Source: Carposina sasakii
Taxonomy: Eukaryota > Arthropoda > Insecta > Lepidoptera > Carposinidae
Reading direction: 5' to 3'
Assembly (NCBI GenBank): GCA_014607495.2
Contig: CP053150.1
Coordinates: forward strand, 13,226,495-13,290,494
Length of the DNA: 64,000 nt
Below, one piece after another: positions 3,656 through 49,348 of the stretch. The notes under the pieces are model-generated. The model was not told where the DNA came from, made no database searches, and saw only the letters and a list, made by a program, of their open reading frames with translations. The translations under genes and the position numbers were made by a program. Each line of letters starts with the position of its first letter. The stretch's first letter is position 1.

Positions 3656-3699
3656 TAAATGCCCAAATGGTCTTTGTTCATCACCGCGTATGCAGAGTA

Positions 3700-11836: not shown

Positions 11837-11874
11837 ATAATATATAATATCTTGACTAAGATAAATTTATAAAA

Positions 11875-12161: not shown

Positions 12162-12269
12162 GAAAATTAATGATATGTTAAATTGCTGACATTTTTATCG
12201 TTGATCGACTAAATATCGATATTAATAGGTACACTTGCTATTTTTGCAAACATTATCAAATTATTTATA

Positions 12270-13352: not shown

Positions 13353-13562
13353 TACAGGGTGTAACAAAAAGGGTATGTTAAGCGAAAAGCTACGTAAATA
13401 GCCCACTGTAGAGAATCTGTCCACAAAATTTGAGACTCGAAATCACATGTTTATTTTTCCCAATAGTATGGAGAATTTTTAAATACTCAGAAATTTTCAT
13501 ACAATCTTTAAAAATAAACATGTGATTTCGAGTCTCAAATTTTGTGGATAGGTTCTCTACGT
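13353..13562. mobile_element. Tc1/mariner-type MITE, AAAAAGGGTATG family, copy B, right end missing
   Basis: The left end TACAGGGTGTAACAAAAAGG is intact with TA before it. The interior matches copies A and C, including an internal inverted pair (AAACATGTGATTTCGAGTCT). The sequence breaks after GGATAGGTTCTCTA, and the expected final ~45 bp are absent; a second MITE begins 8 bp later. Confidence 0.8.
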
Positions 13563-14158: not shown

Positions 14159-14250
14159 TTACATAATAATGTACAAATCGATAGACGCTAATGTAATATT
14201 ATCATCATCATCTTCCTGCCCTTATCTCAATATTTATGGGGCTAGGTTTA

Positions 14251-14441
14251 AGGCTCGAGCACACCGGATGTGTGTGCGTGCACGTAAGCGTAGACGTATA
14301 CGTACCTCTGAGTCGTAATGTATCGAACTGTATAGGCACGGGCAGACCGGATGCGTATGTGTAGACGTAAGCATAGACGTCAAGCGGTGACAGTACGTCT
14401 ACGCTTACGTGCACGCATACGCATCCGGTGTGCTCGAGCCT
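14251..14441. mobile_element. PIF/Harbinger-like MITE, copy 2 of 3
   Basis: The ends are AGGCTCGAGCACACCGG and its reverse complement, with TTA on both sides (14248-14250 and 14442-14444). It is 191 bp, about 23 bp shorter than copy 1 because part of the central inverted pair is missing. Confidence 0.87.
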
Positions 14442-14570
14442 TTATTTTTCAAAATTCACATTCCCAAAGATTTGGCATTTGTTTTACCTACGGCCGGATG
14501 CCGAAACTCTCCTCGGGTATAGCTAAGTGACAATTCTAGTAAATCCGTACATGAAATAAATTCAGTGGTA

Positions 14571-14984: not shown

Positions 14985-15000
14985 TACACACAGTCTTTCC

Positions 15001-15116
15001 AAAATAATGTAGTCAGACTACAGGATCACAAAATAATGTAGTCAGACTGCAGGATCACAAAATAATGTAGTCAGACTGCAGGATCACAAAATAATGTAGT
15101 CAGACTGCAGGATCAC
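15001..15116. repeat. 29-bp minisatellite, four copies
   Basis: Four head-to-tail 29-bp units (AAAATAATGTAGTCAGACTG followed by CAGGATCAC). Units 2-4 are identical; unit 1 differs by a single base (CTACAG for CTGCAG). The array starts and ends at exact unit boundaries. Confidence 0.95.
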
Positions 15117-15642
15117 AAAAAAGATCTTAAATTGCAGCTACGTACGGGGCCAGATGTAAAAGATCAGTGTAATTCGTTTTAAGATCTTTAAACTGAATCA
15201 ATAAATTAGAAGGTCCCCGAGTTAAAGACATGCTTGGAAGGAAAGTCAGCTGATATGGCACCAGTCTAGTGACACCCGGCGTCAGCACAAGACTCCATAG
15301 GTAAACACAATTCATAATTGGTCAGAAACATTCCTTACATAAAAATTTCATGGACTTAAAAAAGTAGTAATTTTATATGCAAATCGCTGTTCTATTCCAC
15401 TTTATAGAATATTGCGAAGTTGGGATATAGGTTAATGTTTGGATAACCGGGACCAAAGGACGTTTGACTCGAAGGCTATATATAAATAAATATGCTCTTA
15501 GGGTTTGAATCAGTCTTTAAATAAATAGATGACTTAGGAAGTAGGTACACATAATGCTTACAGACTTTTTACTTTGAGATGTGTAGGTATAGGCATTATT
15601 TTATCTTTACCACTTCTGCTACACTAGGTGGATTTTTTTAAA
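15117..15642. other. Non-coding stretch before the palindrome
   Basis: Positions about 15120-15310 are somewhat GC-richer (AGCTGATATGGCACCAGTC, CACCCGGCGTCAGCACAAG) and resemble part of 52200-52260 (CAGCTGATATATTCCAGTG, CATCAGCACAGGC). This suggests an old shared repeat. The rest is AT-rich with nothing recognised. Confidence 0.4.
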
Positions 15643-16197
15643 TTATTAAAAAAACAAAATACCCGACTGCACACTAAAAAAAGAGTAAAACAAGCCACAC
15701 AATAATATTGATCAATCAAATGCTAAAAACTAATTATGTAATACCGTTTAAACAATACCTATATTAAAATACACTACAATATGTGTTCGTAATCGATAGT
15801 TAAATAAACAGAAACTTATTTTGAATACAAATTTACTGAATATAATTTATAAATGTTGATGGAAAGCATCGCAGGCGGGGACCAACAGAGGCTTATTTAT
15901 AGTCATTTCGGTTGTGCACCATTTAGCAGAATTTTCGTTGGTGGCGGTCAAGGTGGTCCCCGCCTGCGATGCTTTCCATCAACATTTATAAATTATATTC
16001 AGTAAATTTGTATTCAAAATAAGTTTCTGTTTATTTAACTATCGATTACGAACACATATTGTAGTGTATTTTAATATAGGTATTGTTTTAAACGGTATTA
16101 CATAATTAGTTTTTAGCATTTGATTGATCAATATCATTGTGTGGCTTGTTTTACTCTTTTTTTAGTGTGCAGTCGGGTATTTTGTTTTTTTAATAAT
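15643..16197. repeat. Large near-perfect palindrome at the 3' side of the Helitron array
   Basis: Left arm 15643-15884 and right arm 15954-16197 are reverse complements. I noticed only one substitution (AATAAT against AATGAT) and one A-run length difference, around a 69-bp spacer. The outer 108 bp of the right arm (16090-16197) is the 3' end of Helitron unit 1. The inner ~136 bp occurs nowhere else in the window. On the element's own strand the palindrome runs from ATACCCGACTGCACAC to GTGTGCAGTCGGGTAT. The second Helitron unit lacks the palindrome. Confidence 0.92.
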
Positions 16198-19100
16198 AAT
16201 TCTTTTATTTATAACTTTTTAGCTGTTTTTATTTAACGAAAATGTTGTAGATGTAGAAGACTATGTATATGTAAGTACCATTTTAAATTATTTCGACGAC
16301 ATTTGGCTTTAGATTACGAGTGATGTTACTCCGCAACATAAATTTACCGCCAATCTGGACTGTTTGTAGTGAAGAAGAAAAAGAATTAGGTGAGTCATTA
16401 CTGCTGAAGATCCCGCAAACGTTTAAGTTCAGTTAAAGAACATTCGTCGTGGGGCCGGTCCAACAGCTTTTTTGGGTCAAGTGTTTTTATTGCTAACCCA
16501 GCAAGTGTTTTAACACGGCTTAGGGCTACATAAGCCTGGCCCTTTGCAAACACGTTTGATAGGTCCACGACAGCCCGATCCAAGGTGGTACCTTGCAGTT
16601 TGTGTACCGTTACAGCCCAACAAAGTATCAAAGGCAGCATCCGACGTTCAATCTTCCCTTGTCCGCGAAGCGCATCAAAGTCGACAGTGGAGGGCTCTAT
16701 GCGAACCCCCACACCCAATTCATTGCCCTTAACAGAACGATCGTCGAACTCTACGAATACTGCCTGCGGTAACTCACCTGGTTCTAACTGCTCTCTGCGA
16801 AGAGAAGGCCACTCAATTCTTCTTATGATACCCATAGCACCGTTCACCAGACCGTGGTTTACATTGATGTTGCGGCGTAACATCACGCGAGATCCAATTC
16901 CAATAGTTAGTGTGCCGAGAATGCCCCCTGTTTTGTTCGGGTCGTCAGAAATGTATTGTTTGCGAGGGCACTGACCGTAGGTTTTAGCTTCTAGGGAGAT
17001 GTCAACAGCGTTTATTTGGTAGAGCTTTAACGATTTGCCCAACTTTTTAGTCATGGCTGAATTATAAGCATCGACTTGTTTCGTAGTAGGGAAAATTCGA
17101 ACTGCCTCTCCATCGGCAAATGGACCCTCTAGTGGAATTCTGCGGCTGTCCAGGATCTCAAGTTGGTCCATCGTTAACTCACCAACACGAATATTATTGA
17201 GAATGTCCACAAAGGTATTGTCTCCTGCCTGTCTCATATTCTGTGGCAATTCACAAAAGCTGAACAATTGCCACAGATTTGTTTCACCAGTTAAGTTCGA
17301 CGGCTGTCGGAAGCAGTAAGAACCACCGGTGATTCTGGAAACTGGTGGTAACTGCATGAGATCTCCAAACAAAATTACATTGATACCACCAAAGTTCCCT
17401 TGATCCTGTTTTAGTTGCTGGAGGCGAATGTGAATGTTTCGCAGTGTTAAGTAGGGCACCATTGATATTTCATCGATGATGAGCCAATTTATATGCCTCC
17501 ACTTTTGTCGCTCCCTTTGCAGCCTTTCACCTGTTAGTGGGCGTAATGTTTCATTTCTTCCCTTTTCAATTGGTAGCGCAAAAGTGGAATGCAGTGTAGT
17601 TCCACCGATTAGTCTGGCTGCTACTCCAGTTGGTGCAGTAACAATCACGTTTTTACCTATTTTAGTGTTACTCAACCTACGAATTTGTTCAGTCATAACT
17701 TTTAAGGTAAATGTTTTTCCGGTACCAGCTCCTCCAGTAACAAAAACTAGTAACGGATCAGAATTTGACACGTCCAATAACTTTTGGGAAATTTTTTGAA
17801 ACAGTTGTCGTTGACTCATGTTCAACGAAGCTACAAATGTTTCAAACTGATTGTCTGGCATGCCTATGTCAGTTGGTTCATCTTCGACTTCTTCGATCAT
17901 AATATTATGACCGCCGTCGTCGAGTATGTGTTCAATAGGCTGAACGTCATTGTTGTCATTTGCGTCATCGTTTTGTTCCTCAACGGTTCCTGCTGCCAAG
18001 TTTTCTGCCACAATGCGGCTTATAGCTTGTTGGATCTCAGTTTCCCACCGCATCATAGTTTCGGCGTCAAAACCTTCTTGCAGCGGACGTAGTCGATGCC
18101 TTTTGGCCCAGAAAGCTTCTTTTGCAGTATTAAAACCATCCAACAACTCTTCCTCTGCTCGGAACGGAATATGAGTCAGGACCAATGAGTAGTAATATGC
18201 TTCTGGGTCTGAAGACAGCGTATAATAACGCGTTCGGAGTATAGCTGGACGTGTCCGCTTTTTCATCCTACCTACGTTGTCTAATAAGGTAATGTATCGA
18301 CGACTAGACACGTCCTCATCCTCAGCATCATAGGCATCAGCATCTTGTTCATCCTCCTCTGTATCGTTTCTAGTAGAGGCAACCTCGTACCAAATCGCAA
18401 ACTCACCTAAACTAAGTTGCTCCAGAGAAAGAGGTCTGTGAACGTACCTATCAAATACATTTTTGTACGGTTCGGAACTTTCTGTGTCAATCCTAAGCAT
18501 TCGGTATCTTTGTTCAGGCGCGCAAGTGTTTACGAAAACACATTTACGTGAACTATCTCTTAATTTTAAATGACACAATCGAAACGCACATTCGTTGGCA
18601 GAGACTTCTCTGTGAGACAAGATTGCGTTTTGGATAGCAAAAACCAGCCGTCCCAAGTTGCTTCCACCGCGGTCTCTTACAGCACTTATAGCTTGCCTTA
18701 TTGATCTAGAGACCTCTGCAGGTTCAGCTTTTGAGATATACTTTGAGATGTAGTACGCCACACCTAAAGCTGACCCGCAAGGCTGTAGATCAATATTGGC
18801 GCGCCACAGTTTTAATAATCTCGAATTGTAGCAGTTTATCATGGTTTCCGAATCTGTTCTTTTTAATATATAAAATCTTCCACCATTTCTCATTGCTTGC
18901 TCGTCGTCTAAGATTGTAGTGTTTTCAGACACTGGTCTCGGGAAAGCGAATCTACAAACGTTTCGGTTATTTTTGAAGCATGTTTGAGTGTGTCGATGTG
19001 TTTGTAACTGAACGACTAAATCATGCATCTCTGAGTCGTCCTCAGCGTCGGGAACCTCACACGTGACAACACGCTCCAGCAACTGAATACCTTCAGGGGT

Positions 19101-22100
19101 GTCAAAAGCCGGCATATCAGCACACCATAAAACCATGTGAACGTGAGGGCTACCTCGTAGCTGAAATTCTATGCGCCACCAAAAATCAATAATTTTCTTT
19201 CCTAAAATCGGATCCTCTTCTCTTCTCAGCCTAGTAAACAAAGTGTTTAGGCGCAACATAAATTGTCTTGATAACGTGACTGGGTAGGACTCGACAAGGT
19301 GCTGCTTTTCAAGGAAGGTCAAATCTTCAAAAGAAAAATTTGGGCGGCCATCGGCAACTAAAAGGGCTTTTAGCATGTCGGGCCAATTTAAATCGTTACA
19401 AGAGAGAGTAAGATACCAATGAGGAGGACCTAAATTTTTCACCATGGCAAGAAGATCCGTATACGCTTTGTGCCAGTACGCGGACGTGCCACGTATGTTG
19501 CGCATTACCAGGTGCACATTTTGTACAACATCTGTGGGCTCAGCTCCATCCTGACGCAACCGGCCACAGACTGAAACATTTTGTTGAGCCTTGCAAAGTT
19601 CTACTAACGAGAGGGCGTAAAATATGTACTCGTTAAATTGGAACCGTTTGTCATTGCTCATCACTCGAGTTTGGTAGTAATCGAGCGGTGTTATTGGAAC
19701 GGGTCTTTGTTCCCTAAGCCCATTTCGACCATCTGGGAATAACCTTATCCACGCTAGCTCTTCTGCTCTTTGCTCTCTCAAGACGCTGACCGGGGGCACA
19801 GTTTTCCGTTTGAGTTCGTAGATAGGTATTGGTCTCTCTTCTACGGTATTAGCGTTCGAAACAACTTCGTTTAGATCTGGAATATTAGTATCAATCGGCA
19901 TAAGAGCTGTAGTAACAAACGCGTGTTCTTCGTGCACAGGATCACTGCTATTCAGATTGCCGTCGCTAACTATCTGAGTGTCGTGTTGTTCATTCAGTAC
20001 TGGCGATTCATTTGGGATGACCAAGGGTGTTGCATTTATAGCTGTGATACTATACTGCATATCTCGATGGCCTCTTACCTGTAGTGCAACAGCAAGATGT
20101 TGACATAAATCGCCTTGATTTGCAAACTTCATCAACATGGAGGCTCCTCTGTTAGGTGCAACATAACCTTTGGGTCCCCGAGAATGTGAGTCGAATAAGT
20201 AATATTCTGGGATCTCGACATCGGGAGACTGATTGCGTTCGACGATTACTTTCATTACCGCCAATGCAATATTTGTTTGACATGTAATAATTCCTTTATC
20301 GTGTGTTGTAAAAAAATATTCAATCCCCGAAGACAAATTAGGGAAGTATCCTTCAAGAACGTCAGATGGCGCACTCGAGTTAACAACTCCAACGACAACA
20401 TCGGGCTGTATATTTAATTCGAATTCTGTAGCGGCCACAGAAACTGCGGGTAATAGCTCTTCAGTATTTAAAAATTGCGGTCTGTTTGCAAGTCGTGACA
20501 TGCACCTGTTGAAATATGTATTACCAGCTAATAAAATTCGATCCAAGTCAGATGGGGCCCATTCATTTAATGGTTTGGAACTGGAGTAGGCGATAGCCGT
20601 GGCGGCATTAGCCGTGCACTGGCGGCCACGGGATTCCTCTTCAAACCGATCACTGCCTTGGTGAAAAGACCCACGCAAGATGTGACGGTCATGTCCCAAA
20701 GCCTTGAAGTGATTTTTTGGCTCATTTCTAATGTGATCTGCATTTTCTAATGTGATAACTGCCTCCAGAATACTTGACCGTATCTCTTCATTGGTAATGT
20801 TAGTATTAATTTGCACATTAGAGTACAAATGATTGTTTCGCAATAGCCACTCTAATGCTTTCTTAATTTTTTCGATGTCTACCGAGTATCGTCGATTGTT
20901 TGTCACGTTATCTAAATTTTCAGTGACCACACTTATTCCCGCATTTGCTATATTCAATGGAAGCTGTTCAGGTATCTCTTCAACTTGCTGTGCAAAGAGG
21001 ATGGCTTGCCCCTTAAATCCCTGTTGTCCGTAACGACCACCCAGACGCACCACTTTTATAAACGGTTTTATCCGAGAAATGAGCCGCAGCTCCATCTCTG
21101 ATAGACATTCAATTTCAGGCGGAATAGGTGCAACAGTCATGTTGTTCCAAAATGCATTTGACGGGCACTGATTCCTTGACAATTTGTTGGCGCATCTATT
21201 GCAACAATCTATGCGGTCTGAAACATTTTGTGGTAGAACAGTAATATTAGCAGTTAAGATACTGCGTGACTGTTTCTTGTATAGAAGCTTATGACATACG
21301 TAGCACACCACATCCGCCACTTGAGAAATCGCTTCATTGAATGTGGCATCACTATTTGTAAACAACTGCCGTCGAACACGAGACTGTGACCTCATAGCCG
21401 AAAGTCTTTCTAAACGCGAGCCAGGTGATTCGTTGTTACGAGACTGCACAGCATACTCTCGCATCTGCTCGAGTCGAGAAGCGCGGGATGATGGAGACTC
21501 ATGCTCACGAATTAATTCGGCATGCTCCCGCATCTGGTCGAGTCGGGCAGCGCGAGTTGGTGGAGACTCGTGTTCGCGAACATTTCCCGCATGCTCCCGC
21601 ATCTGCTCGAGTCGAGCAGCGCGAGATGATGGAGACTCATGTTTACGAACGTTTGTGGCATATTCCCGCATCTGCTGGAGTCGTGTCATACGAGACGACG
21701 GGGACTCAGCAGCTCTCTTTTCAGATTTGCTAGCTGCAAGCCTACGCCGCTTTTGTTCCCTATCAACGCTAGACTCACGTGCTTGTAAAGTACGTCTACG
21801 GGTACTTTTGTTATTTATAAGCTCTTGACGTGAAGTAGGTGAAAGTTGGCTGTACCGTTGGGACATTCTTACTCTTGCTTCTATAAGGCGTTTTTCGCGT
21901 GCCTCAGGAGATTCGGCTTTTAATTTTTTAGCCCGAGCCTGAGCCCTTTTTGTTTTGCGAGATAATCCCATATTGTATGTTTTTATTTTTTAAAATGGTC
22001 TGATACCTATTGCCGAAAAAATCAGTACTAATGGAGAAGTACTTAATAATAATAAAAAAAAAACAGTTGAACTATAACTAAAAAAAAAATACAAAAAGAA

Positions 22101-22833
22101 TAAGTGAGGATTGTTTAAAAGAATGTTACTTAAACTAACCAAAAATATCTACCTACCTAGTTATTTTATTAATAATTATTATTATATTATTAATTAATAT
22201 GAATAATTTAAGAAAGAACCAAAAAAAAAAGAACGGAAGAACGAGTTAATTAATTAGAAAGAACGAATAAATTTAAAGAGAGAAACACGAAAGAAAAAGA
22301 ACGAGTTATTTATACTTTATAAGTTTCGCGTCAGACGACGAAGTATCGAAAAAATCGCTATTTAGAGACGACCGTCAACGACGTGTGCCCTTATGCGTGT
22401 GCCCGCATTCGGGCTGTATACTCGAGCATATCCCCCTCCGCACCGCGCCGCGCGCCGCATGCCAGGCCACGCCCTATCTTTTTGCTTGCTAACGCATGAG
22501 TTGCTTTGCGTTGACGCAGAATTAACATGTTCCCGTGGGAATTTTGAGAAAAAACGTATCCTATATTAATTACTCCCGTGATTGAAATGAATCTAATGAT
22601 ACCGCATACATATTTTTGTTGTTTAAAGGGAAATTTAGAAAAAATATTATTATGTCTTTATCCCGTGGGACTTTTATGATAAAATGTATCCTATGACACT
22701 CCCGTAATCAAGACAAATCTAACGATACCTCATACATCAAAATCCATCAAGCCGTTTAGGCTACAGGAGGTCACAAAGGAACAGACATACATACATACTT
22801 ACATACACTCCCTCAACATTACCCTCCCTCTTT
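16090..22833 (-). mobile_element. Autonomous Helitron-like element, tandem unit 1
   Basis: This 6744-bp unit is repeated at 22834-29577 head to tail with no spacer, only a shared TTT at the joint. Read on its coding strand it starts AAAGAGGGAGGGTAATG, has about 860 bp of leader, then the Rep-helicase gene, and ends ..TAATACCGTTT. The leader includes a GC-rich patch near 22440-22480, ATACATACATAC words and CCCGTGGGA/GTATCCTAT segments typical of lepidopteran Helitrons. Differences from unit 2 that I saw are single bases at about 16136, 21994 and 22507. Its 3' side continues into the palindrome at 15643-16197, which is probably its true terminus. Confidence 0.88.
16398..21971 (-). CDS. Intact Helitron Rep-helicase (RepHel), unit 1
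   Basis: This 1857-codon uninterrupted gene encodes the rolling-circle transposase: it nicks and joins DNA at the element ends and unwinds it 5'-3'. Residues 1-200 are basic and hold five 23-residue repeats (89-196, pattern ESPSSRxxRLxQMREH). A Cys cluster follows (C223, C226, C256, C257, C260, C269). A region around 265-345 resembles the domain annotated DUF6570 in arthropod Helitron proteins. The Rep core has the HUH motif H943-V-H945 (SPHVHMVLW) and the tyrosine motif at 1073-1078 (YYISKY, YxxxY). The C terminus is a PIF1/RecD-like SF1B helicase with Walker A GGAGTGKT (K1419), Walker B IIDE (D1500, E1501), GDLMQLPP, and motif VI ALSR (R1819). All key residues are present. The ATG is the first in the frame and is preceded by an AT-rich leader. 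No OTU or apurinic-type endonuclease domain was seen. Confidence 0.95.
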   Translation of the reverse strand: MGLSRKTKRAQARAKKLKAESPEAREKRLIEARVRMSQRYSQLSPTSRQELINNKSTRRRTLQARESSVDREQKRRRLAASKSEKRAAESPSSRMTRLQQMREYATNVRKHESPSSRAARLEQMREHAGNVREHESPPTRAARLDQMREHAELIREHESPSSRASRLEQMREYAVQSRNNESPGSRLERLSAMRSQSRVRRQLFTNSDATFNEAISQVADVVCYVCHKLLYKKQSRSILTANITVLPQNVSDRIDCCNRCANKLSRNQCPSNAFWNNMTVAPIPPEIECLSEMELRLISRIKPFIKVVRLGGRYGQQGFKGQAILFAQQVEEIPEQLPLNIANAGISVVTENLDNVTNNRRYSVDIEKIKKALEWLLRNNHLYSNVQINTNITNEEIRSSILEAVITLENADHIRNEPKNHFKALGHDRHILRGSFHQGSDRFEEESRGRQCTANAATAIAYSSSKPLNEWAPSDLDRILLAGNTYFNRCMSRLANRPQFLNTEELLPAVSVAATEFELNIQPDVVVGVVNSSAPSDVLEGYFPNLSSGIEYFFTTHDKGIITCQTNIALAVMKVIVERNQSPDVEIPEYYLFDSHSRGPKGYVAPNRGASMLMKFANQGDLCQHLAVALQVRGHRDMQYSITAINATPLVIPNESPVLNEQHDTQIVSDGNLNSSDPVHEEHAFVTTALMPIDTNIPDLNEVVSNANTVEERPIPIYELKRKTVPPVSVLREQRAEELAWIRLFPDGRNGLREQRPVPITPLDYYQTRVMSNDKRFQFNEYIFYALSLVELCKAQQNVSVCGRLRQDGAEPTDVVQNVHLVMRNIRGTSAYWHKAYTDLLAMVKNLGPPHWYLTLSCNDLNWPDMLKALLVADGRPNFSFEDLTFLEKQHLVESYPVTLSRQFMLRLNTLFTRLRREEDPILGKKIIDFWWRIEFQLRGSPHVHMVLWCADMPAFDTPEGIQLLERVVTCEVPDAEDDSEMHDLVVQLQTHRHTQTCFKNNRNVCRFAFPRPVSENTTILDDEQAMRNGGRFYILKRTDSETMINCYNSRLLKLWRANIDLQPCGSALGVAYYISKYISKAEPAEVSRSIRQAISAVRDRGGSNLGRLVFAIQNAILSHREVSANECAFRLCHLKLRDSSRKCVFVNTCAPEQRYRMLRIDTESSEPYKNVFDRYVHRPLSLEQLSLGEFAIWYEVASTRNDTEEDEQDADAYDAEDEDVSSRRYITLLDNVGRMKKRTRPAILRTRYYTLSSDPEAYYYSLVLTHIPFRAEEELLDGFNTAKEAFWAKRHRLRPLQEGFDAETMMRWETEIQQAISRIVAENLAAGTVEEQNDDANDNNDVQPIEHILDDGGHNIMIEEVEDEPTDIGMPDNQFETFVASLNMSQRQLFQKISQKLLDVSNSDPLLVFVTGGAGTGKTFTLKVMTEQIRRLSNTKIGKNVIVTAPTGVAARLIGGTTLHSTFALPIEKGRNETLRPLTGERLQRERQKWRHINWLIIDEISMVPYLTLRNIHIRLQQLKQDQGNFGGINVILFGDLMQLPPVSRITGGSYCFRQPSNLTGETNLWQLFSFCELPQNMRQAGDNTFVDILNNIRVGELTMDQLEILDSRRIPLEGPFADGEAVRIFPTTKQVDAYNSAMTKKLGKSLKLYQINAVDISLEAKTYGQCPRKQYISDDPNKTGGILGTLTIGIGSRVMLRRNINVNHGLVNGAMGIIRRIEWPSLRREQLEPGELPQAVFVEFDDRSVKGNELGVGVRIEPSTVDFDALRGQGKIERRMLPLILCWAVTVHKLQGTTLDRAVVDLSNVFAKGQAYVALSRVKTLAGLAIKTLDPKKLLDRPHDECSLTELKRLRDLQQ

Positions 22834-25800
22834 AAACGGTATTACATAATTAGTTTTTAGCATTTGATTGATCAATATTATTGTGTGGCTTGTTTTACTC
22901 TTTTTTTAGTGTGCAGTCGGGTATTTTGTTTTTTTAATAATAATTCTTTTATTTATAACTTTTTAGCTGTTTTTATTTAACGAAAATGTTGTAGATGTAG
23001 AAGACTATGTATATGTAAGTACCATTTTAAATTATTTCGACGACATTTGGCTTTAGATTACGAGTGATGTTACTCCGCAACATAAATTTACCGCCAATCT
23101 GGACTGTTTGTAGTGAAGAAGAAAAAGAATTAGGTGAGTCATTACTGCTGAAGATCCCGCAAACGTTTAAGTTCAGTTAAAGAACATTCGTCGTGGGGCC
23201 GGTCCAACAGCTTTTTTGGGTCAAGTGTTTTTATTGCTAACCCAGCAAGTGTTTTAACACGGCTTAGGGCTACATAAGCCTGGCCCTTTGCAAACACGTT
23301 TGATAGGTCCACGACAGCCCGATCCAAGGTGGTACCTTGCAGTTTGTGTACCGTTACAGCCCAACAAAGTATCAAAGGCAGCATCCGACGTTCAATCTTC
23401 CCTTGTCCGCGAAGCGCATCAAAGTCGACAGTGGAGGGCTCTATGCGAACCCCCACACCCAATTCATTGCCCTTAACAGAACGATCGTCGAACTCTACGA
23501 ATACTGCCTGCGGTAACTCACCTGGTTCTAACTGCTCTCTGCGAAGAGAAGGCCACTCAATTCTTCTTATGATACCCATAGCACCGTTCACCAGACCGTG
23601 GTTTACATTGATGTTGCGGCGTAACATCACGCGAGATCCAATTCCAATAGTTAGTGTGCCGAGAATGCCCCCTGTTTTGTTCGGGTCGTCAGAAATGTAT
23701 TGTTTGCGAGGGCACTGACCGTAGGTTTTAGCTTCTAGGGAGATGTCAACAGCGTTTATTTGGTAGAGCTTTAACGATTTGCCCAACTTTTTAGTCATGG
23801 CTGAATTATAAGCATCGACTTGTTTCGTAGTAGGGAAAATTCGAACTGCCTCTCCATCGGCAAATGGACCCTCTAGTGGAATTCTGCGGCTGTCCAGGAT
23901 CTCAAGTTGGTCCATCGTTAACTCACCAACACGAATATTATTGAGAATGTCCACAAAGGTATTGTCTCCTGCCTGTCTCATATTCTGTGGCAATTCACAA
24001 AAGCTGAACAATTGCCACAGATTTGTTTCACCAGTTAAGTTCGACGGCTGTCGGAAGCAGTAAGAACCACCGGTGATTCTGGAAACTGGTGGTAACTGCA
24101 TGAGATCTCCAAACAAAATTACATTGATACCACCAAAGTTCCCTTGATCCTGTTTTAGTTGCTGGAGGCGAATGTGAATGTTTCGCAGTGTTAAGTAGGG
24201 CACCATTGATATTTCATCGATGATGAGCCAATTTATATGCCTCCACTTTTGTCGCTCCCTTTGCAGCCTTTCACCTGTTAGTGGGCGTAATGTTTCATTT
24301 CTTCCCTTTTCAATTGGTAGCGCAAAAGTGGAATGCAGTGTAGTTCCACCGATTAGTCTGGCTGCTACTCCAGTTGGTGCAGTAACAATCACGTTTTTAC
24401 CTATTTTAGTGTTACTCAACCTACGAATTTGTTCAGTCATAACTTTTAAGGTAAATGTTTTTCCGGTACCAGCTCCTCCAGTAACAAAAACTAGTAACGG
24501 ATCAGAATTTGACACGTCCAATAACTTTTGGGAAATTTTTTGAAACAGTTGTCGTTGACTCATGTTCAACGAAGCTACAAATGTTTCAAACTGATTGTCT
24601 GGCATGCCTATGTCAGTTGGTTCATCTTCGACTTCTTCGATCATAATATTATGACCGCCGTCGTCGAGTATGTGTTCAATAGGCTGAACGTCATTGTTGT
24701 CATTTGCGTCATCGTTTTGTTCCTCAACGGTTCCTGCTGCCAAGTTTTCTGCCACAATGCGGCTTATAGCTTGTTGGATCTCAGTTTCCCACCGCATCAT
24801 AGTTTCGGCGTCAAAACCTTCTTGCAGCGGACGTAGTCGATGCCTTTTGGCCCAGAAAGCTTCTTTTGCAGTATTAAAACCATCCAACAACTCTTCCTCT
24901 GCTCGGAACGGAATATGAGTCAGGACCAATGAGTAGTAATATGCTTCTGGGTCTGAAGACAGCGTATAATAACGCGTTCGGAGTATAGCTGGACGTGTCC
25001 GCTTTTTCATCCTACCTACGTTGTCTAATAAGGTAATGTATCGACGACTAGACACGTCCTCATCCTCAGCATCATAGGCATCAGCATCTTGTTCATCCTC
25101 CTCTGTATCGTTTCTAGTAGAGGCAACCTCGTACCAAATCGCAAACTCACCTAAACTAAGTTGCTCCAGAGAAAGAGGTCTGTGAACGTACCTATCAAAT
25201 ACATTTTTGTACGGTTCGGAACTTTCTGTGTCAATCCTAAGCATTCGGTATCTTTGTTCAGGCGCGCAAGTGTTTACGAAAACACATTTACGTGAACTAT
25301 CTCTTAATTTTAAATGACACAATCGAAACGCACATTCGTTGGCAGAGACTTCTCTGTGAGACAAGATTGCGTTTTGGATAGCAAAAACCAGCCGTCCCAA
25401 GTTGCTTCCACCGCGGTCTCTTACAGCACTTATAGCTTGCCTTATTGATCTAGAGACCTCTGCAGGTTCAGCTTTTGAGATATACTTTGAGATGTAGTAC
25501 GCCACACCTAAAGCTGACCCGCAAGGCTGTAGATCAATATTGGCGCGCCACAGTTTTAATAATCTCGAATTGTAGCAGTTTATCATGGTTTCCGAATCTG
25601 TTCTTTTTAATATATAAAATCTTCCACCATTTCTCATTGCTTGCTCGTCGTCTAAGATTGTAGTGTTTTCAGACACTGGTCTCGGGAAAGCGAATCTACA
25701 AACGTTTCGGTTATTTTTGAAGCATGTTTGAGTGTGTCGATGTGTTTGTAACTGAACGACTAAATCATGCATCTCTGAGTCGTCCTCAGCGTCGGGAACC

Positions 25801-28800
25801 TCACACGTGACAACACGCTCCAGCAACTGAATACCTTCAGGGGTGTCAAAAGCCGGCATATCAGCACACCATAAAACCATGTGAACGTGAGGGCTACCTC
25901 GTAGCTGAAATTCTATGCGCCACCAAAAATCAATAATTTTCTTTCCTAAAATCGGATCCTCTTCTCTTCTCAGCCTAGTAAACAAAGTGTTTAGGCGCAA
26001 CATAAATTGTCTTGATAACGTGACTGGGTAGGACTCGACAAGGTGCTGCTTTTCAAGGAAGGTCAAATCTTCAAAAGAAAAATTTGGGCGGCCATCGGCA
26101 ACTAAAAGGGCTTTTAGCATGTCGGGCCAATTTAAATCGTTACAAGAGAGAGTAAGATACCAATGAGGAGGACCTAAATTTTTCACCATGGCAAGAAGAT
26201 CCGTATACGCTTTGTGCCAGTACGCGGACGTGCCACGTATGTTGCGCATTACCAGGTGCACATTTTGTACAACATCTGTGGGCTCAGCTCCATCCTGACG
26301 CAACCGGCCACAGACTGAAACATTTTGTTGAGCCTTGCAAAGTTCTACTAACGAGAGGGCGTAAAATATGTACTCGTTAAATTGGAACCGTTTGTCATTG
26401 CTCATCACTCGAGTTTGGTAGTAATCGAGCGGTGTTATTGGAACGGGTCTTTGTTCCCTAAGCCCATTTCGACCATCTGGGAATAACCTTATCCACGCTA
26501 GCTCTTCTGCTCTTTGCTCTCTCAAGACGCTGACCGGGGGCACAGTTTTCCGTTTGAGTTCGTAGATAGGTATTGGTCTCTCTTCTACGGTATTAGCGTT
26601 CGAAACAACTTCGTTTAGATCTGGAATATTAGTATCAATCGGCATAAGAGCTGTAGTAACAAACGCGTGTTCTTCGTGCACAGGATCACTGCTATTCAGA
26701 TTGCCGTCGCTAACTATCTGAGTGTCGTGTTGTTCATTCAGTACTGGCGATTCATTTGGGATGACCAAGGGTGTTGCATTTATAGCTGTGATACTATACT
26801 GCATATCTCGATGGCCTCTTACCTGTAGTGCAACAGCAAGATGTTGACATAAATCGCCTTGATTTGCAAACTTCATCAACATGGAGGCTCCTCTGTTAGG
26901 TGCAACATAACCTTTGGGTCCCCGAGAATGTGAGTCGAATAAGTAATATTCTGGGATCTCGACATCGGGAGACTGATTGCGTTCGACGATTACTTTCATT
27001 ACCGCCAATGCAATATTTGTTTGACATGTAATAATTCCTTTATCGTGTGTTGTAAAAAAATATTCAATCCCCGAAGACAAATTAGGGAAGTATCCTTCAA
27101 GAACGTCAGATGGCGCACTCGAGTTAACAACTCCAACGACAACATCGGGCTGTATATTTAATTCGAATTCTGTAGCGGCCACAGAAACTGCGGGTAATAG
27201 CTCTTCAGTATTTAAAAATTGCGGTCTGTTTGCAAGTCGTGACATGCACCTGTTGAAATATGTATTACCAGCTAATAAAATTCGATCCAAGTCAGATGGG
27301 GCCCATTCATTTAATGGTTTGGAACTGGAGTAGGCGATAGCCGTGGCGGCATTAGCCGTGCACTGGCGGCCACGGGATTCCTCTTCAAACCGATCACTGC
27401 CTTGGTGAAAAGACCCACGCAAGATGTGACGGTCATGTCCCAAAGCCTTGAAGTGATTTTTTGGCTCATTTCTAATGTGATCTGCATTTTCTAATGTGAT
27501 AACTGCCTCCAGAATACTTGACCGTATCTCTTCATTGGTAATGTTAGTATTAATTTGCACATTAGAGTACAAATGATTGTTTCGCAATAGCCACTCTAAT
27601 GCTTTCTTAATTTTTTCGATGTCTACCGAGTATCGTCGATTGTTTGTCACGTTATCTAAATTTTCAGTGACCACACTTATTCCCGCATTTGCTATATTCA
27701 ATGGAAGCTGTTCAGGTATCTCTTCAACTTGCTGTGCAAAGAGGATGGCTTGCCCCTTAAATCCCTGTTGTCCGTAACGACCACCCAGACGCACCACTTT
27801 TATAAACGGTTTTATCCGAGAAATGAGCCGCAGCTCCATCTCTGATAGACATTCAATTTCAGGCGGAATAGGTGCAACAGTCATGTTGTTCCAAAATGCA
27901 TTTGACGGGCACTGATTCCTTGACAATTTGTTGGCGCATCTATTGCAACAATCTATGCGGTCTGAAACATTTTGTGGTAGAACAGTAATATTAGCAGTTA
28001 AGATACTGCGTGACTGTTTCTTGTATAGAAGCTTATGACATACGTAGCACACCACATCCGCCACTTGAGAAATCGCTTCATTGAATGTGGCATCACTATT
28101 TGTAAACAACTGCCGTCGAACACGAGACTGTGACCTCATAGCCGAAAGTCTTTCTAAACGCGAGCCAGGTGATTCGTTGTTACGAGACTGCACAGCATAC
28201 TCTCGCATCTGCTCGAGTCGAGAAGCGCGGGATGATGGAGACTCATGCTCACGAATTAATTCGGCATGCTCCCGCATCTGGTCGAGTCGGGCAGCGCGAG
28301 TTGGTGGAGACTCGTGTTCGCGAACATTTCCCGCATGCTCCCGCATCTGCTCGAGTCGAGCAGCGCGAGATGATGGAGACTCATGTTTACGAACGTTTGT
28401 GGCATATTCCCGCATCTGCTGGAGTCGTGTCATACGAGACGACGGGGACTCAGCAGCTCTCTTTTCAGATTTGCTAGCTGCAAGCCTACGCCGCTTTTGT
28501 TCCCTATCAACGCTAGACTCACGTGCTTGTAAAGTACGTCTACGGGTACTTTTGTTATTTATAAGCTCTTGACGTGAAGTAGGTGAAAGTTGGCTGTACC
28601 GTTGGGACATTCTTACTCTTGCTTCTATAAGGCGTTTTTCGCGTGCCTCAGGAGATTCGGCTTTTAATTTTTTAGCCCGAGCCTGAGCCCTTTTTGTTTT
28701 GCGAGATAATCCCATATTGTATGTTTTTATTTCTTAAAATGGTCTGATACCTATTGCCGAAAAAATCAGTACTAATGGAGAAGTACTTAATAATAATAAA

Positions 28801-29577
28801 AAAAAAACAGTTGAACTATAACTAAAAAAAAAATACAAAAAGAATAAGTGAGGATTGTTTAAAAGAATGTTACTTAAACTAACCAAAAATATCTACCTAC
28901 CTAGTTATTTTATTAATAATTATTATTATATTATTAATTAATATGAATAATTTAAGAAAGAACCAAAAAAAAAAGAACGGAAGAACGAGTTAATTAATTA
29001 GAAAGAACGAATAAATTTAAAGAGAGAAACACGAAAGAAAAAGAACGAGTTATTTATACTTTATAAGTTTCGCGTCAGACGACGAAGTATCGAAAAAATC
29101 GCTATTTAGAGACGACCGTCAACGACGTGTGCCCTTATGCGTGTGCCCGCATTCGGGCTGTATACTCGAGCATATCCCCCTCCGCACCGCGCCGCGCGCC
29201 GCATGCCAGGCCACGCCCTATCTTTTTGCTTGCTAACGCATGAGTTGTTTTGCGTTGACGCAGAATTAACATGTTCCCGTGGGAATTTTGAGAAAAAACG
29301 TATCCTATATTAATTACTCCCGTGATTGAAATGAATCTAATGATACCGCATACATATTTTTGTTGTTTAAAGGGAAATTTAGAAAAAATATTATTATGTC
29401 TTTATCCCGTGGGACTTTTATGATAAAATGTATCCTATGACACTCCCGTAATCAAGACAAATCTAACGATACCTCATACATCAAAATCCATCAAGCCGTT
29501 TAGGCTACAGGAGGTCACAAAGGAACAGACATACATACATACTTACATACACTCCCTCAACATTACCCTCCCTCTTT
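22834..29577 (-). mobile_element. Autonomous Helitron-like element, tandem unit 2
   Basis: Second 6744-bp unit, same orientation as unit 1. On the coding strand it is the upstream copy: its 3' end (..TAATACCGTTT, 22834) runs straight into the 5' end of unit 1. Its own 5' end (29577) borders CCGACTGCC on the minus strand, so the outer boundary carries GCAGTCGGGT (29579-29588), the inverse of ACCCGACTGC at 15661-15670 beyond the other end of the array. No target duplication was seen, as expected for Helitrons. Confidence 0.88.
23142..28715 (-). CDS. Intact Helitron Rep-helicase (RepHel), unit 2
   Basis: Encodes a protein identical, as far as I can read, to the 16398-21971 product, with the same 1857 codons, HUH, YxxxY and helicase motifs. 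Both genes being open and identical implies that the duplication is too young for decay, or that the copies are homogenised. Of the three differences noted between units, none falls in the coding region: they lie in the 3' flank, just upstream of the ATG and in the leader. The leader upstream of this copy ends at the outer boundary (29577), so only this copy has the original genomic sequence upstream. Unit 1's leader abuts the 3' end of this unit. Confidence 0.94.
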   Translation of the reverse strand: MGLSRKTKRAQARAKKLKAESPEAREKRLIEARVRMSQRYSQLSPTSRQELINNKSTRRRTLQARESSVDREQKRRRLAASKSEKRAAESPSSRMTRLQQMREYATNVRKHESPSSRAARLEQMREHAGNVREHESPPTRAARLDQMREHAELIREHESPSSRASRLEQMREYAVQSRNNESPGSRLERLSAMRSQSRVRRQLFTNSDATFNEAISQVADVVCYVCHKLLYKKQSRSILTANITVLPQNVSDRIDCCNRCANKLSRNQCPSNAFWNNMTVAPIPPEIECLSEMELRLISRIKPFIKVVRLGGRYGQQGFKGQAILFAQQVEEIPEQLPLNIANAGISVVTENLDNVTNNRRYSVDIEKIKKALEWLLRNNHLYSNVQINTNITNEEIRSSILEAVITLENADHIRNEPKNHFKALGHDRHILRGSFHQGSDRFEEESRGRQCTANAATAIAYSSSKPLNEWAPSDLDRILLAGNTYFNRCMSRLANRPQFLNTEELLPAVSVAATEFELNIQPDVVVGVVNSSAPSDVLEGYFPNLSSGIEYFFTTHDKGIITCQTNIALAVMKVIVERNQSPDVEIPEYYLFDSHSRGPKGYVAPNRGASMLMKFANQGDLCQHLAVALQVRGHRDMQYSITAINATPLVIPNESPVLNEQHDTQIVSDGNLNSSDPVHEEHAFVTTALMPIDTNIPDLNEVVSNANTVEERPIPIYELKRKTVPPVSVLREQRAEELAWIRLFPDGRNGLREQRPVPITPLDYYQTRVMSNDKRFQFNEYIFYALSLVELCKAQQNVSVCGRLRQDGAEPTDVVQNVHLVMRNIRGTSAYWHKAYTDLLAMVKNLGPPHWYLTLSCNDLNWPDMLKALLVADGRPNFSFEDLTFLEKQHLVESYPVTLSRQFMLRLNTLFTRLRREEDPILGKKIIDFWWRIEFQLRGSPHVHMVLWCADMPAFDTPEGIQLLERVVTCEVPDAEDDSEMHDLVVQLQTHRHTQTCFKNNRNVCRFAFPRPVSENTTILDDEQAMRNGGRFYILKRTDSETMINCYNSRLLKLWRANIDLQPCGSALGVAYYISKYISKAEPAEVSRSIRQAISAVRDRGGSNLGRLVFAIQNAILSHREVSANECAFRLCHLKLRDSSRKCVFVNTCAPEQRYRMLRIDTESSEPYKNVFDRYVHRPLSLEQLSLGEFAIWYEVASTRNDTEEDEQDADAYDAEDEDVSSRRYITLLDNVGRMKKRTRPAILRTRYYTLSSDPEAYYYSLVLTHIPFRAEEELLDGFNTAKEAFWAKRHRLRPLQEGFDAETMMRWETEIQQAISRIVAENLAAGTVEEQNDDANDNNDVQPIEHILDDGGHNIMIEEVEDEPTDIGMPDNQFETFVASLNMSQRQLFQKISQKLLDVSNSDPLLVFVTGGAGTGKTFTLKVMTEQIRRLSNTKIGKNVIVTAPTGVAARLIGGTTLHSTFALPIEKGRNETLRPLTGERLQRERQKWRHINWLIIDEISMVPYLTLRNIHIRLQQLKQDQGNFGGINVILFGDLMQLPPVSRITGGSYCFRQPSNLTGETNLWQLFSFCELPQNMRQAGDNTFVDILNNIRVGELTMDQLEILDSRRIPLEGPFADGEAVRIFPTTKQVDAYNSAMTKKLGKSLKLYQINAVDISLEAKTYGQCPRKQYISDDPNKTGGILGTLTIGIGSRVMLRRNINVNHGLVNGAMGIIRRIEWPSLRREQLEPGELPQAVFVEFDDRSVKGNELGVGVRIEPSTVDFDALRGQGKIERRMLPLILCWAVTVHKLQGTTLDRAVVDLSNVFAKGQAYVALSRVKTLAGLAIKTLDPKKLLDRPHDECSLTELKRLRDLQQ

Positions 29578-29966
29578 GGCAGTCGGGTAATAAAGAAAGG
29601 AATAATTAATCAAAATTACATGGTATTATTATATCTTTAATTGAAAATATATTATACCCTTAGAAAACTTTTTTCATTTCCTTTCTTCGAACCAGCCAGC
29701 GGGAAGTATGATGAACTTTTTTCATTTGTTCACAAAAGCAGTAAGACACGTTCAACTCGTCCCACTTATTGGGATTTTTAATTTTCTTTATCCCATAAAC
29801 AGGTACAGTAATTTGTATCAAATAAAAACAAATTCTAGTTGCAAGAATGCAGGACCAATCTTATGAATCAACGTTTGTTTACTATCTCACCACCACTTTT
29901 AATGCAGAAAAATACTAGAATCTAAAGGGTAACGAAATCTAAAGGGTAATCTTACTGAGTCATCTA
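29578..29966. other. Flank between the Helitron array and the mariner element
   Basis: Begins with GCAGTCGGGTAATAAAG, the outer Helitron boundary. The rest is AT-rich with no gene; a short direct repeat (AATCTAAAGGGTAA / AATCTAAAGGGTAATC) lies near 29920-29950. Confidence 0.5.
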
Positions 29967-30699: not shown

Positions 30700-31740
30700 T
30701 CAGTCTTCGGCTATCGCGGCATTTAGTTCGATAAACGCGGCTCTGATTCGTAGCTCCATGACGTCTCGTCTATCACACTCTGTGACGTACACGCGCTCTT
30801 TGATGTAACCCCATAGGAAAAAATCCAACGGGGTCAAATCAGGCAAGCGCGGTGGCCACAAATGGGGACCGTAGCGTCCAATCCACCGGCCCGGAAAGAT
30901 CGCGTCCAGGTGCTGGCGTACGGTGAGTACCACATGTGGAGGAGCTCCATCATGCTGGAACCAAATCCTCGGCATTCGGGCAAGAGGGACGTCGTCGTCA
31001 ACATCAAGCTCAGCGCGGAGAATTTCCACCTCGCGTCCTAGCTCTTGTTGTAGAAATGCCAAATAACTGGTGCCGTTTATACGTGCCGGCAAAAATACCG
31101 GCCCGAGGATTTGGTTATGGTACACACCAGCCCACACATTTAAGGACCACCGAGTCTGGTGCCCCGTCTGCTGGATGGCATTCGGGTTACCATGTGACCA
31201 CAGATGGGCATTGCGCCGGTTCCACATACCGTTACGCGTAAATGTGGATTCATCAGTCCAGATTACTCTGGATATGAAGCCAGCATTTACGCGTTCCTGG
31301 CTAATGAGCCAACGACAATACGCCACCCGGCGACTTGCGTCTCCCGGCACCAGAGCCTGCACCTTGTGGATGCAGTATGGGCGCTGCCGATCTCTACGCA
31401 GCACTTTATGCACAGTCTAGTGCGACGTACGAGCTCCATGATGCCGCTGAATCAATTTCGCAGCGGTGCGCGTACCCAGACGTGGATTACGGCGAACCAC
31501 AGCTAAAACTCGTTCTTCGGTACGCAGAGCAACTGGTCGTCCAGCCCCTTCTTGTGTCGGTACAATTGGCCGATTATCTAGCACCCTTTGATACGCTGCG
31601 GTTATAATACGGCCATTTGCTGGGTGCCTAGCGTTGGGATAACGCTCCCTGTACATCCTCAAGGCAAGCGAGGCATTTCCTCGGGCTTCGCCCAAACACA
31701 TGAGCATCTGCCCGTACTCACGTGCACTAAATACACTCAT
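30700..31740 (-). pseudogene. DD41D mariner-like transposase, one in-frame stop
   Basis: The frame runs from ATG 31740 (MSVFSAREYG; an upstream in-frame ATG at 31773 adds 11 residues) to a stop at 30700, 347 codons in all. That is normal mariner length. It is broken once, by TAG at 31417-31419, directly after ..HHGARTSH. The N-terminal part is a helix-turn-helix DNA-binding region of the type often annotated DUF4817. The catalytic acids are visible in the C-terminal part: WTDES (first D), FQHDGAPPH (second) and PDLTPLDFF (third), with 41 residues between the second and third. This spacing places it in the DD41D group rather than classic DD34D mariner. Since only one lesion is visible, the copy died recently, or the stop is a sequencing error or is read through. 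Confidence 0.85.
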
Positions 31741-36355: not shown

Positions 36356-36776
36356 GCACCACGATATATCGACTTTACGTGTATTCGTTATTTGTTAAAG
36401 TATTAAGTCATATAGTCGTTTGGAATATTGCGTTCTATAATAAAATACAGTACCTACATATAACAAAATATTTTATATACAGGCTGTGGATGACAGCCAG
36501 GCAAATACTGAAATTCTGAACAAGTATCATTGTGTTGAGTTATACGACAAAGTTATTACTCGCAGGAAATGTATTTTTGATTTAAAATTCCAACTAATTT
36601 TTCATTTTTGACCCGACTGCGCGACGCAAAGGAGTGGTATTGTGTTTAACAGCCTATGTATGTATGTATGTTCCTTCGGCCGATTTTTATGATTAATACG
36701 TCAATCGATTCCTTAAGAAGACTAAGGTCCGGCGAGTGTCAATAAAGACATGACGTTAGTAAAAATCTAATATTTT

Positions 36777-37058
36777 AAAATTATTAATAAAGAAATGGAA
36801 AAAATTCTTCACCCGAGTGGGAATCGAACCCACGACCACTGCAAACCGTGCCAGCCGCTCTAAATACTGAGCTACCGGGTCAATTACTCGGATGACGAAT
36901 TTTACCTCTTTTCTAAATTACATATTTGCAACATTATTTTTCATCCCGATAGCTATACACTAGCCAAATCTCGGCAAACAAAGCTGAATCCCTCAGCACA
37001 ATGTTTAAAGATGAAACGATTAACCATATCCTAATGGATTATATTAATGGAGAAGTGT
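36777..37058 (-). repeat. SINE-like repeat with tRNA-like segment, minus strand
   Basis: Near-complete reverse copy of 11875-12161. The tRNA-like part is 36809-36881, with an A box (TAGCTCAGTATTTAG), less perfect than in the other copy, and an intact B box (GGTTCGATTCC). Confidence 0.75.
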
Positions 37059-37402
37059 TAAAATATAAAATAATAATAAAAAATAAAATCTAATATGGCG
37101 ACTACGGGATGCCATTTTGTTAAAATGAAAAAAAAAGTCGTCAAACTATATCGAGTGGGGTATCGTTGAATAGGTATTTAAAAATCATTTTTAGGTTTCT
37201 CTCAATATTTTTCGATTCGACTAACCGTTTAGGATCCATATCGATTGAAATTTGTGTAACAACAACTTCTTACATATAAGTTTTTAGACAGCAGCAAGAC
37301 GAAATATTCTTGCTGCCAAGCATGTTGAGCATGTTTTTCGAACCGTATCTATTAGTAACTAGGTACTCATAACAAAAAAGTAATAAATAAAAAAAAAACA
37401 TT

Positions 37403-37859
37403 ATTTAAAAAATCCAGGAACCCGACTGCTTAAAAAAGAACCAAATAATACCTATACTCGTACATAATAAAAAAAACTGAAAAGAAAAAAAAACAAGCAT
37501 TCAGATGTCCGGTGGTATAGAATTCTATAATGTTATTATATTTATTATATTATTATTATTAATTATATTATGGAATGAATACTATTGAAGAACTTAAATT
37601 TTTTTCTAATGATCGTAACATAACAACTGAACAAGCCAGGATCCATTGAAATATTATTACCTTGGCTGTCGGATAATGGATGCCGACTGTTCAGTTGTTA
37701 TGTTACGATCATTAGGAAATATTTTATGTTCTTCAATAGTATTAATTCCATAATAATATTATAGAATTCTAGATCACTGGACATCTAAGTGCTTGTTTTT
37801 TTTATTAGGTACATTAATTGGTTCTTTTTTAAGCTGTCTGGTTCCTGGATATTTTAAAT
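37403..37859. repeat. Large inverted repeat at the 3' end of the Helitron-like element
   Basis: Left arm 37403-37633 and right arm 37688-37859 are reverse complements with several substitutions and an extra AT-rich block in the left arm, around a 54-bp spacer. Landmarks pairing across it are TCCAGGAAC/GTTCCTGGA, TAGAATTCTATAA/TTATAGAATTCTA and TGATCGTAACATAACAACTG with its complement. The spacer itself holds CATCCATTATCC-type and AGCCAGGATCC segments forming a smaller inverted pair. Confidence 0.9.
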
Positions 37860-38285
37860 ATTTTTTTTTTCAGAAAAAAATTGTATGATCAAAAAAACAG
37901 TAATGTACCACACAATAACCAAAAAGCCCATTTAACTAGTCAGAGGATCGCCCGATACAATTGGCACGAAAAGCAAACATTGCGGATAATCAAATTAAAA
38001 ATGTATTTCCTGCGAGTAATAACACTGTCGTATAACTCAAAACAATGCTACTTGTTTAGTATTTCAGTATTTACCTGGCTGTCACACACACCCTGTATAG
38101 TGGTATAAATAAGATAATCCTCTAATCTTTTCTGCGTCACAACGTTACCTTATCACACGAAGGCAGGGTTTGAGACAACTCGACATCGAAAGTACTAGAA
38201 AGGTCGACGATCTTCGGAAAAAACAAAAAATATACCTAGCCAACTTTTATATAGAACTCTACTTAAACATGACTATGTTAATATA

Positions 38286-39622: not shown

Positions 39623-39624
39623 TA

Positions 39625-49123: not shown

Positions 49124-49126
49124 TTA

Positions 49127-49345: not shown

Positions 49346-49348
49346 TTA

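What the first reader, a model, noticed from the sequence alone, without database searches (positions are those of the whole stretch)
16090..29577. Two intact Helitron-like elements in perfect head-to-tail tandem
Seen: two 6744-bp units joined without spacer, both with an uninterrupted 1857-codon Rep-helicase. I could find only three single-base differences, all outside the gene. Known: rolling-circle (Helitron) transposition can yield tandem copies when the 3' end is not recognised and replication passes on. Inference: this is a recently active, possibly still functional, autonomous element. Intact autonomous Helitrons are uncommon because most copies are decayed.
Basis: partly seen in the sequence, partly recalled or inferred. 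Interest (0 to 1): 0.85.

Follow-up and report, generated by a model that had tools for sequence, protein, structure and literature searches.

The report
Tandem-duplicated butterfly Helitron with hairpin end
A young rolling-circle jumping gene in what is probably a Colias butterfly carries its single, still intact gene twice in a row; the copies are joined at a point where the element's usual end, a very long DNA hairpin, is missing, which fits the idea that losing this stop signal lets copying run a second lap.

Summary
The repeat is real: two direct 6,744-bp units, three single-base differences, one identical 1,857-codon Rep-helicase frame in each (minus strand). The unit is not the whole element, however. 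Copies elsewhere in the assembly show that the element runs from about 29592 (5' end, TT-ACCCGACTGC) to about 15642 (3' end). The inner junction lacks most of the palindrome and the 5'-terminal 15-17 nt, and is joined at a 3-nt match. So this is one ~13.95-kb Helitron2-type (endonuclease-less, Helentron-like) insertion with an internal tandem duplication, not two complete elements end to end. The family is young: near-identical copies, private mutations. The window's two frames are the only complete ones among 25 candidates scored of 1,616. Best reading: replication skipped the 3' hairpin, lost the terminator and made a second lap; host template switching, nested insertion with collapse, and artefact remain possible. 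Tandem Helitrons are known. Less usual are the long 3' hairpin, rare loop flips, an inverted dimer elsewhere, and STPR plus tegument-type deubiquitinase domains. Reads were not available, so assembly error is not excluded.

The parts
15642..29592 (-). whole insertion: one Helitron2-type element with an internal tandem duplication (about 13.95 kb; minus one unit = about 7.2 kb, the length of the slices of full-length copies L014, L023, L025: 7,203-7,204)
16087..22830 (-). downstream (left) unit of the duplication; continues into the genuine 3' end
22831..29577 (-). upstream (right) unit of the duplication; continues into the genuine 5' end
22831..22833 (.). inner junction, 3-nt microhomology (AAA in element sense); 445 nt of the 3' end and the 5'-terminal 15-17 nt absent; pattern unique in the assembly
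29562..29592 (-). 5' end: TT-ACCCGACTGC terminal motif, with a 7-bp stem ATTACCC/GGGTAAT (29562-29568 and 29585-29591, read by eye)
15642..16197 (-). 3' end: palindrome, arms 15642-15884 and 15954-16197, 69-nt loop; folds at -274 kcal/mol versus a mean of -47 for 100 shuffles
15660..15670 (-). 3' copy of the terminal motif, inverted relative to the 5' end (GCAGTCGGGTA in element sense), in the outer arm
16398..21971 (-). transposase gene, left copy, 1,857 aa: STPR repeats, DUF6570, tegument-type DUB (VTD), Rep HUH with two tyrosines (motifs read by eye), PIF1 helicase; no AP endonuclease found
23142..28715 (-). transposase gene, right copy, identical protein
20112..20669 (-). VTD deubiquitinase-like domain (residues 435-620) in the left copy; the Cys and Asp-x-His motifs align with PDB 8ADD
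36604..37870 (+). older non-autonomous relative with the same 5' motif and an imperfect 3' palindrome (arms 37389-37633 / 37688-37870); the motif is degenerate in its outer arm

Best explanation
One Helitron2-type rolling-circle element (single Rep-VTD-PIF1 gene, no endonuclease) is inserted at 15642-29592, and a 6,744-bp internal segment of it is duplicated head to tail. Shown: the true ends, the long 3' hairpin-forming palindrome, its absence and that of the 5' tip at the inner junction, and recent activity of the family. Inferred: during replicative transposition on a head-to-tail joined (circular) template, synthesis reached the inner arm of the 3' hairpin and skipped the rest of it plus the first 15-17 nt of the next lap (about 460 nt, at an AAA match). 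With the terminator gone, a second lap followed until an intact 3' end was copied, and the dimer was inserted as one piece.
For: Unit and three differences. With a query spanning the left edge, 41 of 43 matches begin at its first base, 87 bases outside the unit, and 20 of them (window included) cover all of it at 99-100%, so the 'flank' belongs to the element (40 of 99 candidates scored). In 20 fetched loci the 5' motif is present in 20 and the 3' outer arm with its motif in 19; L018 is interrupted by a nested insertion. All 53 distinct five-prime ends read TT before ACCCGACTGC; T also stands at -5 in 52 of 53, and the one exception is the inner junction of the other head-to-tail pair, L022. 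20 three-prime ends stop 4-30 nt past the outer motif; of 19 tallied, 17 end in T. That pair (L022, 1.4-kb deletion derivatives) also lacks its outer arm at the inner junction. Helraiser work names the 3' hairpin as terminator and describes bypass and circles (PMC4778049, PMC5876387; passages seen).
Against: No read data and no detected circle. Three nt of microhomology also fits ordinary replication-based tandem duplication. No mutation is shared by the two units to the exclusion of the four other copies compared, so they are not shown to be sisters. Tandems are rare: no family member lies directly upstream in 29 further loci (30 five-prime ends, 400 nt looked at), apart from an older 81% 5' end about 160 nt upstream in L040. 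A third head-to-tail case (L018/L031) turned out to be a nested insertion, not a lap.
Confidence: 0.55

Rival explanations
1. Host replication or repair made the tandem after insertion: template switching or unequal exchange at the AAA match near the unstable palindrome, with no role for the transposase.
For: 3-nt microhomology and breakpoints inside hairpin-forming ends; internal deletions, some with short matches at the breakpoints, are common in the family; L031 and L073 show other template-switch-like structures.
Against: The skipped part is the 3' end plus the 5' tip, which would be neighbours on a circle; L022 shows the same kind of loss.
Confidence: 0.22
2. Nested insertion: a second copy inserted into the 3' palindrome of the first at a T-run (CCG-TTT), then the duplicated palindromes collapsed by recombination.
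For: The family inserts next to T, and L018/L031 is a clean nested insertion in another copy's outer arm.
Against: Needs two further events here: loss of the new 5' tip and collapse of the palindromes. No further element sequence was found in 15000-15641 beyond the palindrome. The L022 inner junction lacks the T at -5 that the other 52 ends have.
Confidence: 0.1
3. Assembly artefact, or a single inserted copy plus free 6.7-kb circles that the assembler threaded into the chromosome.
For: Copies are about 99.9% alike, so assembly is hard; reads were not available.
Against: The junction was found nowhere else in the assembly, so it is not a mere join of assembled copies; the two units differ at three sites, each private to one unit; each outer end of the element is present once in the window.
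Confidence: 0.1
4. One reading: two complete elements joined precisely 3' to 5' by simple bypass of the 3' end.
For: Head-to-tail order and near identity.
Against: The inner junction lacks the 3' palindrome's greater part, the outer motif and the 5' motif that the other copies carry.
Confidence: 0.03

Closest known systems
Helitron2 elements (endonuclease-less relatives of Helentrons; e.g. FoHeli of Fusarium oxysporum, PMC5148889, passages seen)
   Same: Single Rep-helicase gene without AP endonuclease; asymmetric inverted repeat at the 5' tip and near the 3' end; hairpins at both ends (FoHeli1, FoHeli2); insertion after T-rich sequence as quoted there for Helitron2.
   Different: 3' hairpin with 243-bp arms instead of a short one; STPR and VTD domains in the protein; variable 3' stop within a T-rich tail, which that paper did not see in FoHelis.
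Helentrons and their non-autonomous HINE/DINE-1 partners (PMC4067079; Background, part of Results and passages seen)
   Same: TT insertion, T-runs of variable number at the ends, subterminal inverted repeats, S between G and P in the Rep motif (RGSPHVH), deletion derivatives sharing the ends; VTD domains are reported from Helentrons (PMC9741609, passages).
   Different: No C-terminal AP endonuclease; the 3' palindrome reported for the mite families is 5-10 bp.
Helraiser / canonical Helitrons (PMC4778049, PMC5876387; passages seen)
   Same: HUH Rep plus PIF1 helicase, 3' hairpin as terminator; circles and tandem copies are described there.
   Different: No 5'-TC / CTRR-3' ends, no A-T target; best protein match to Helraiser lies in the helicase.
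Tandem Helitron arrays (bat and silkworm, cited in PMC4067079; bat, Drosophila, rice, maize, cited in PMC5148889)
   Same: Helitron copies in tandem, attributed in PMC4067079 to a bypassed termination signal.
   Different: Here the true ends are known from sister copies and the junction visibly lacks the terminator region.

Membership tests
Helitron2 | Rep (HUH, two Tyr) and PIF1 helicase in one protein | tested here: met
   Pfam Helitron_like_N 799-948, PIF1 1383-1601; RGSPHVH and YISKY read by eye in the protein
Helitron2 | no endonuclease domain | tested here: met
   No endonuclease family in the Pfam scan at E<=0.001; frame ends just after the helicase
Helitron2 | asymmetric terminal inverted repeat and hairpins at both ends | tested here: met
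   ACCCGACTGC at the 5' tip, GCAGTCGGGT 4-30 nt from the 3' end in 20 copies, 5' stem 7 bp by eye, 3' stem 243 bp
Helitron2 | phylogenetic grouping of Rep-Hel with Helitron2/Helentron | not tested
   No tree was built; only the S in RGSPH was checked by eye against the signature quoted in PMC4067079; the triplet before the motif reads WWR, its first residue not F/Y
Helentron | C-terminal AP endonuclease | tested here: not met
Helentron | insertion at TT, variable T-runs at ends | tested here: met
   TT before the motif in 53 of 53 distinct ends; 3' end in T in 17 of 19
Canonical Helitron (Helitron1) | 5'-TC and CTRR-3' ends, A-T target | tested here: not met
Terminator-bypass (rolling-circle) tandem | precise 3'-to-5' end junction between copies | tested here: not met
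Terminator-bypass (rolling-circle) tandem | free circular intermediate | not testable with these tools
   no reads or DNA

The most novel reading that the evidence does not exclude
This Helitron2 lineage may pass through a hairpin-ended intermediate: the 3' hairpin folds back and primes its own copying, rather like the ends of parvoviruses (comparison recalled, not tested). That would explain why both arms stay nearly identical, why the loop is found in both orientations (L016 and L069 inverted), why one copy has its outer arm copied about 100 nt further than the others (L073), and why one insertion is a tail-to-tail inverted dimer (L031). The tandem in the window would then be one of several template-switch products of such replication.
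Probability: 0.15. Interest if true: 0.8.

Novelty: new variant of a known kind. Interest (0 to 1): 0.52.

Why it matters
How Helitron-type elements stop, and why they sometimes run on and form tandems, has been studied above all with a reconstructed bat element and with genomic copies (papers seen in part; an active wheat family is also reported, PMC13286980, passages seen). Here a very young natural family shows its 5' end in 53 places and its 3' end in 20 full-context copies, and two dimers whose inner junctions lack the presumed stop signal. The only two complete frames among the candidates scored sit in this window, so this locus is a good candidate for the family's source in a living insect and a place to test hairpin-dependent termination.

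Tried and rejected
Rejected: (a) the palindrome as host flank or as a separate fold-back MITE: it occurs with the element in 41 of 43 matches and in the fetched copies. (b) CCGTTTAAA as the true 3' terminus, my own early reading, withdrawn when the copies were compared. (c) The tandem as an amplified mobile dimer: its junction is unique in the assembly. (d) The long 3' palindrome as a universal feature of relatives: of two 52%-identical sister elements, the one on C5 shows no second arm and the one on C10 has an inverted second copy after a 182-nt gap. (e) The family's terminal motif in the sister loci: none at <=1 mismatch, and no end similarity beyond 15-17-nt matches.

Led nowhere: viral-contig scans (no relative); genome-contig scan (one weak helicase hit in a Bacteroidetes MAG); joint search of papers for the whole words STPR and Helitron (none). 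Loci L074 and L075 (older copies with damaged palindromes) were fetched but left out of the end and loop counts, as was L073.

Full report
OBSERVATION. Comparing the window with itself at an offset of 6,744 gives a shared stretch 16087-22833 / 22831-29577 broken by three mismatches only, at 16135, 21989 and 22504. All are C/T and lie outside the gene. Each unit has a 1,857-codon frame on the minus strand, with identical translations. The chance that three random changes all miss the frame is about 0.005 (about 1,170 of 6,747 positions, cubed; my arithmetic, not a planned test).

HOST. The closest database protein is from Colias eurytheme (P0003, reported as 100% identical over 54% of the query), and a full-length relative is 63% identical (P0002); six proteins passed, from 7,985 candidates scored. 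The window lies in a 399-Mb, 31-contig assembly, C3:13226495-13290494.

PROTEIN. Pfam gives STPR repeats, DUF6570, Helitron_like_N, PIF1 and helicase sub-domains, and no endonuclease of the AP type. Residues 435-620 match PDB 8ADD, which the passages of PMC9741609 seen describe as a tegument-like deubiquitinase domain from a zebrafish Helitron. The Cys motif (RQCT) and the Asp-x-His motif (FDSHSR) align. That paper says the VTD-bearing Helitrons carry an AP endonuclease; none was found here. No paper in the held library contains both whole words STPR and Helitron; other spellings were not tried.

TRUE ENDS. A 401-base query from the left edge, including 87 bases outside the unit, had 43 matches (99 candidates, 40 scored). 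41 of 43 begin at the first query base, 20 (window included) cover the whole query at 99-100%, and the window's second unit is the match that begins exactly at the unit edge. Against a single-copy reference they show one common 5' end, found in 20 of 20, and one common 3' palindrome, whose outer arm and motif are found in 19 of 20; L018 is interrupted there. Over the window, these loci and 29 further short loci, 53 distinct five-prime ends were seen. TT precedes ACCCGACTGC in 53 of 53; T stands at -5 in 52 of 53, the exception being the L022 inner junction. At the 3' end the outer arm stops 4 to 30 nt past the inverted motif in 20 copies, the window among them; the L022 value is shortened by an indel. 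17 of the 19 other ends are T. L069, fetched later, stops earlier, in a T-run before the motif. The palindrome (arms 15642-15884 and 15954-16197, 69-nt loop, one mismatch and one indel between arms) folds at -274 kcal/mol against a mean of -47 (sd 4.3) for 100 shuffles. Thus the insertion is 15642 to about 29592, and the duplicated unit omits both tips. Without one unit it is about 7.2 kb, like the slices of L014, L023 and L025 (7,203-7,204).

ACTIVITY. Pairwise differences among the window units and four near-full-length copies are 3 to 12 per 6.7-7.2 kb, gaps not counted; apart from end and flank positions, every substitution is private to one copy. A 1.4-kb deletion derivative (same breakpoints) occurs in nine of the 20 loci; it differs by 0-1 bases from the L022 copies, except L016, which has a different 5' tip and an inverted loop. 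In a genome-wide protein search (34 matches; 1,616 candidates, 25 scored) only the two window frames are complete. Five other near-full-length loci are broken by indels, stops or truncation. A sister family at 52% identity has two long open frames, on C5 and C10. The 5'-end query had 42 matches (241 candidates, 40 scored), so copy number is a lower bound.

THE TANDEM JUNCTION. A 28-base pattern across the inner junction (up to 2 mismatches) is found once in the assembly. It joins reference position 6810 (inside the inner arm) to 64 (15-17 nt inside the 5' end) at AAA. On a linear element this is a backward jump of 6.7 kb; on a circle with joined ends it is a forward skip of about 460 nt that removes most of the hairpin and the 5' tip. 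L022 is a second head-to-tail pair: its first copy stops near the end of the loop, and the next copy's intact 5' motif follows. L018 looked like a third, but the neighbouring DNA (L031) shows a clean nested insertion in the outer arm's T-run. In 29 further loci (30 five-prime ends, 400 nt upstream) no family member lies directly upstream; L040 has an older 81% 5' end about 160 nt upstream, and L039 holds two copies 5' to 5'.

OTHER REARRANGEMENTS. The insertion in L031 consists of a deletion derivative followed by an inverted copy of its body back to the 5' tip, and a further 3' palindrome. The halves are not letter-perfect mirror images. L073 joins the body to the loop and an outer arm copied about 100 nt beyond the usual stop. 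The loop is inverted in L016 and L069; over 32 loops counted, 29 read forward and 3 inverted, the third inside the symmetric L031 structure. An older non-autonomous relative in the window (36604-37870) also ends in a palindrome, with the motif exact in its inner arm and degenerate in its outer arm. Against a general rule, the C5 sister has no second arm.

MECHANISM. From papers seen in passages or parts: the 3' hairpin of Helraiser acts as terminator and can be bypassed (PMC4778049); circles are intermediates (PMC5876387); tandem arrays are attributed to a bypassed stop signal (PMC4067079), and tandem insertions are cited for several hosts (PMC5148889). A junction that lacks the stop signal fits this model better than it fits a precise end-to-end dimer. 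Ordinary template switching near a palindrome gives the same product and cannot be ruled out, and neither can an assembly artefact without reads. The fold-back reading is bolder: loop flips, near-identical arms, the over-extended arm and the inverted dimer all fit it, but each could also come from host recombination.

NOVELTY. Tandem Helitrons are known. Paper searches gave, in their listings and in the passages I saw, no description of a Helitron with a 3' palindrome of this length; most listed papers were not opened, so this is weak. I rate it a new variant of a known kind.

Noticed in passing
36604-37870 (+): Older non-autonomous Helitron2-type element with the same terminal motif and an imperfect 3' palindrome; carries a segment (36768-37059) 93% identical to 11874-12169.
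   Followed up: partly
12054-12129: ARAGORN calls a tRNA-Pro (cgg) inside the 11874-12169 repeat; the related segment 36768-37059 gave no call, so a tRNA-derived SINE is only a guess.
   Followed up: no
40745-41322: Array of 4.6 copies of a 127-bp unit carrying the CCCGTGGGAATT motif also seen in the 5' region of the element.
   Followed up: no
33866-34214, 42085-42438, 61136-61456: Dispersed repeat family of about 340 bp, around 90% identical, both orientations.
   Followed up: no
3438-3659, 14247-14444, 49123-49349; 39623-39895, 13351-13560, 12274-12508: Two families of short repeats, most of them self-complementary (fold-back, MITE-like).
   Followed up: no
30700-31413 (-): 237-aa frame with a DDE_3 match below Pfam's cut-off: perhaps a decayed cut-and-paste transposase.
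   Followed up: no
21451-21683, 28195-28427: 69-nt (23-aa) coding repeats: the STPR region, matching fibroin-modulator-binding protein 1 chains in the PDB; the sister elements have 57-nt repeats near the start of their frames.
   Followed up: partly
L039 (G000:C3:13071880-13072480): Two copies of the family lie 5' end to 5' end about 160 bp apart.
   Followed up: no
L016 and other loci of the 472/6279 deletion class: The same internal deletion occurs with two different 5' tips, suggesting exchange of 5' ends between subfamilies.
   Followed up: no
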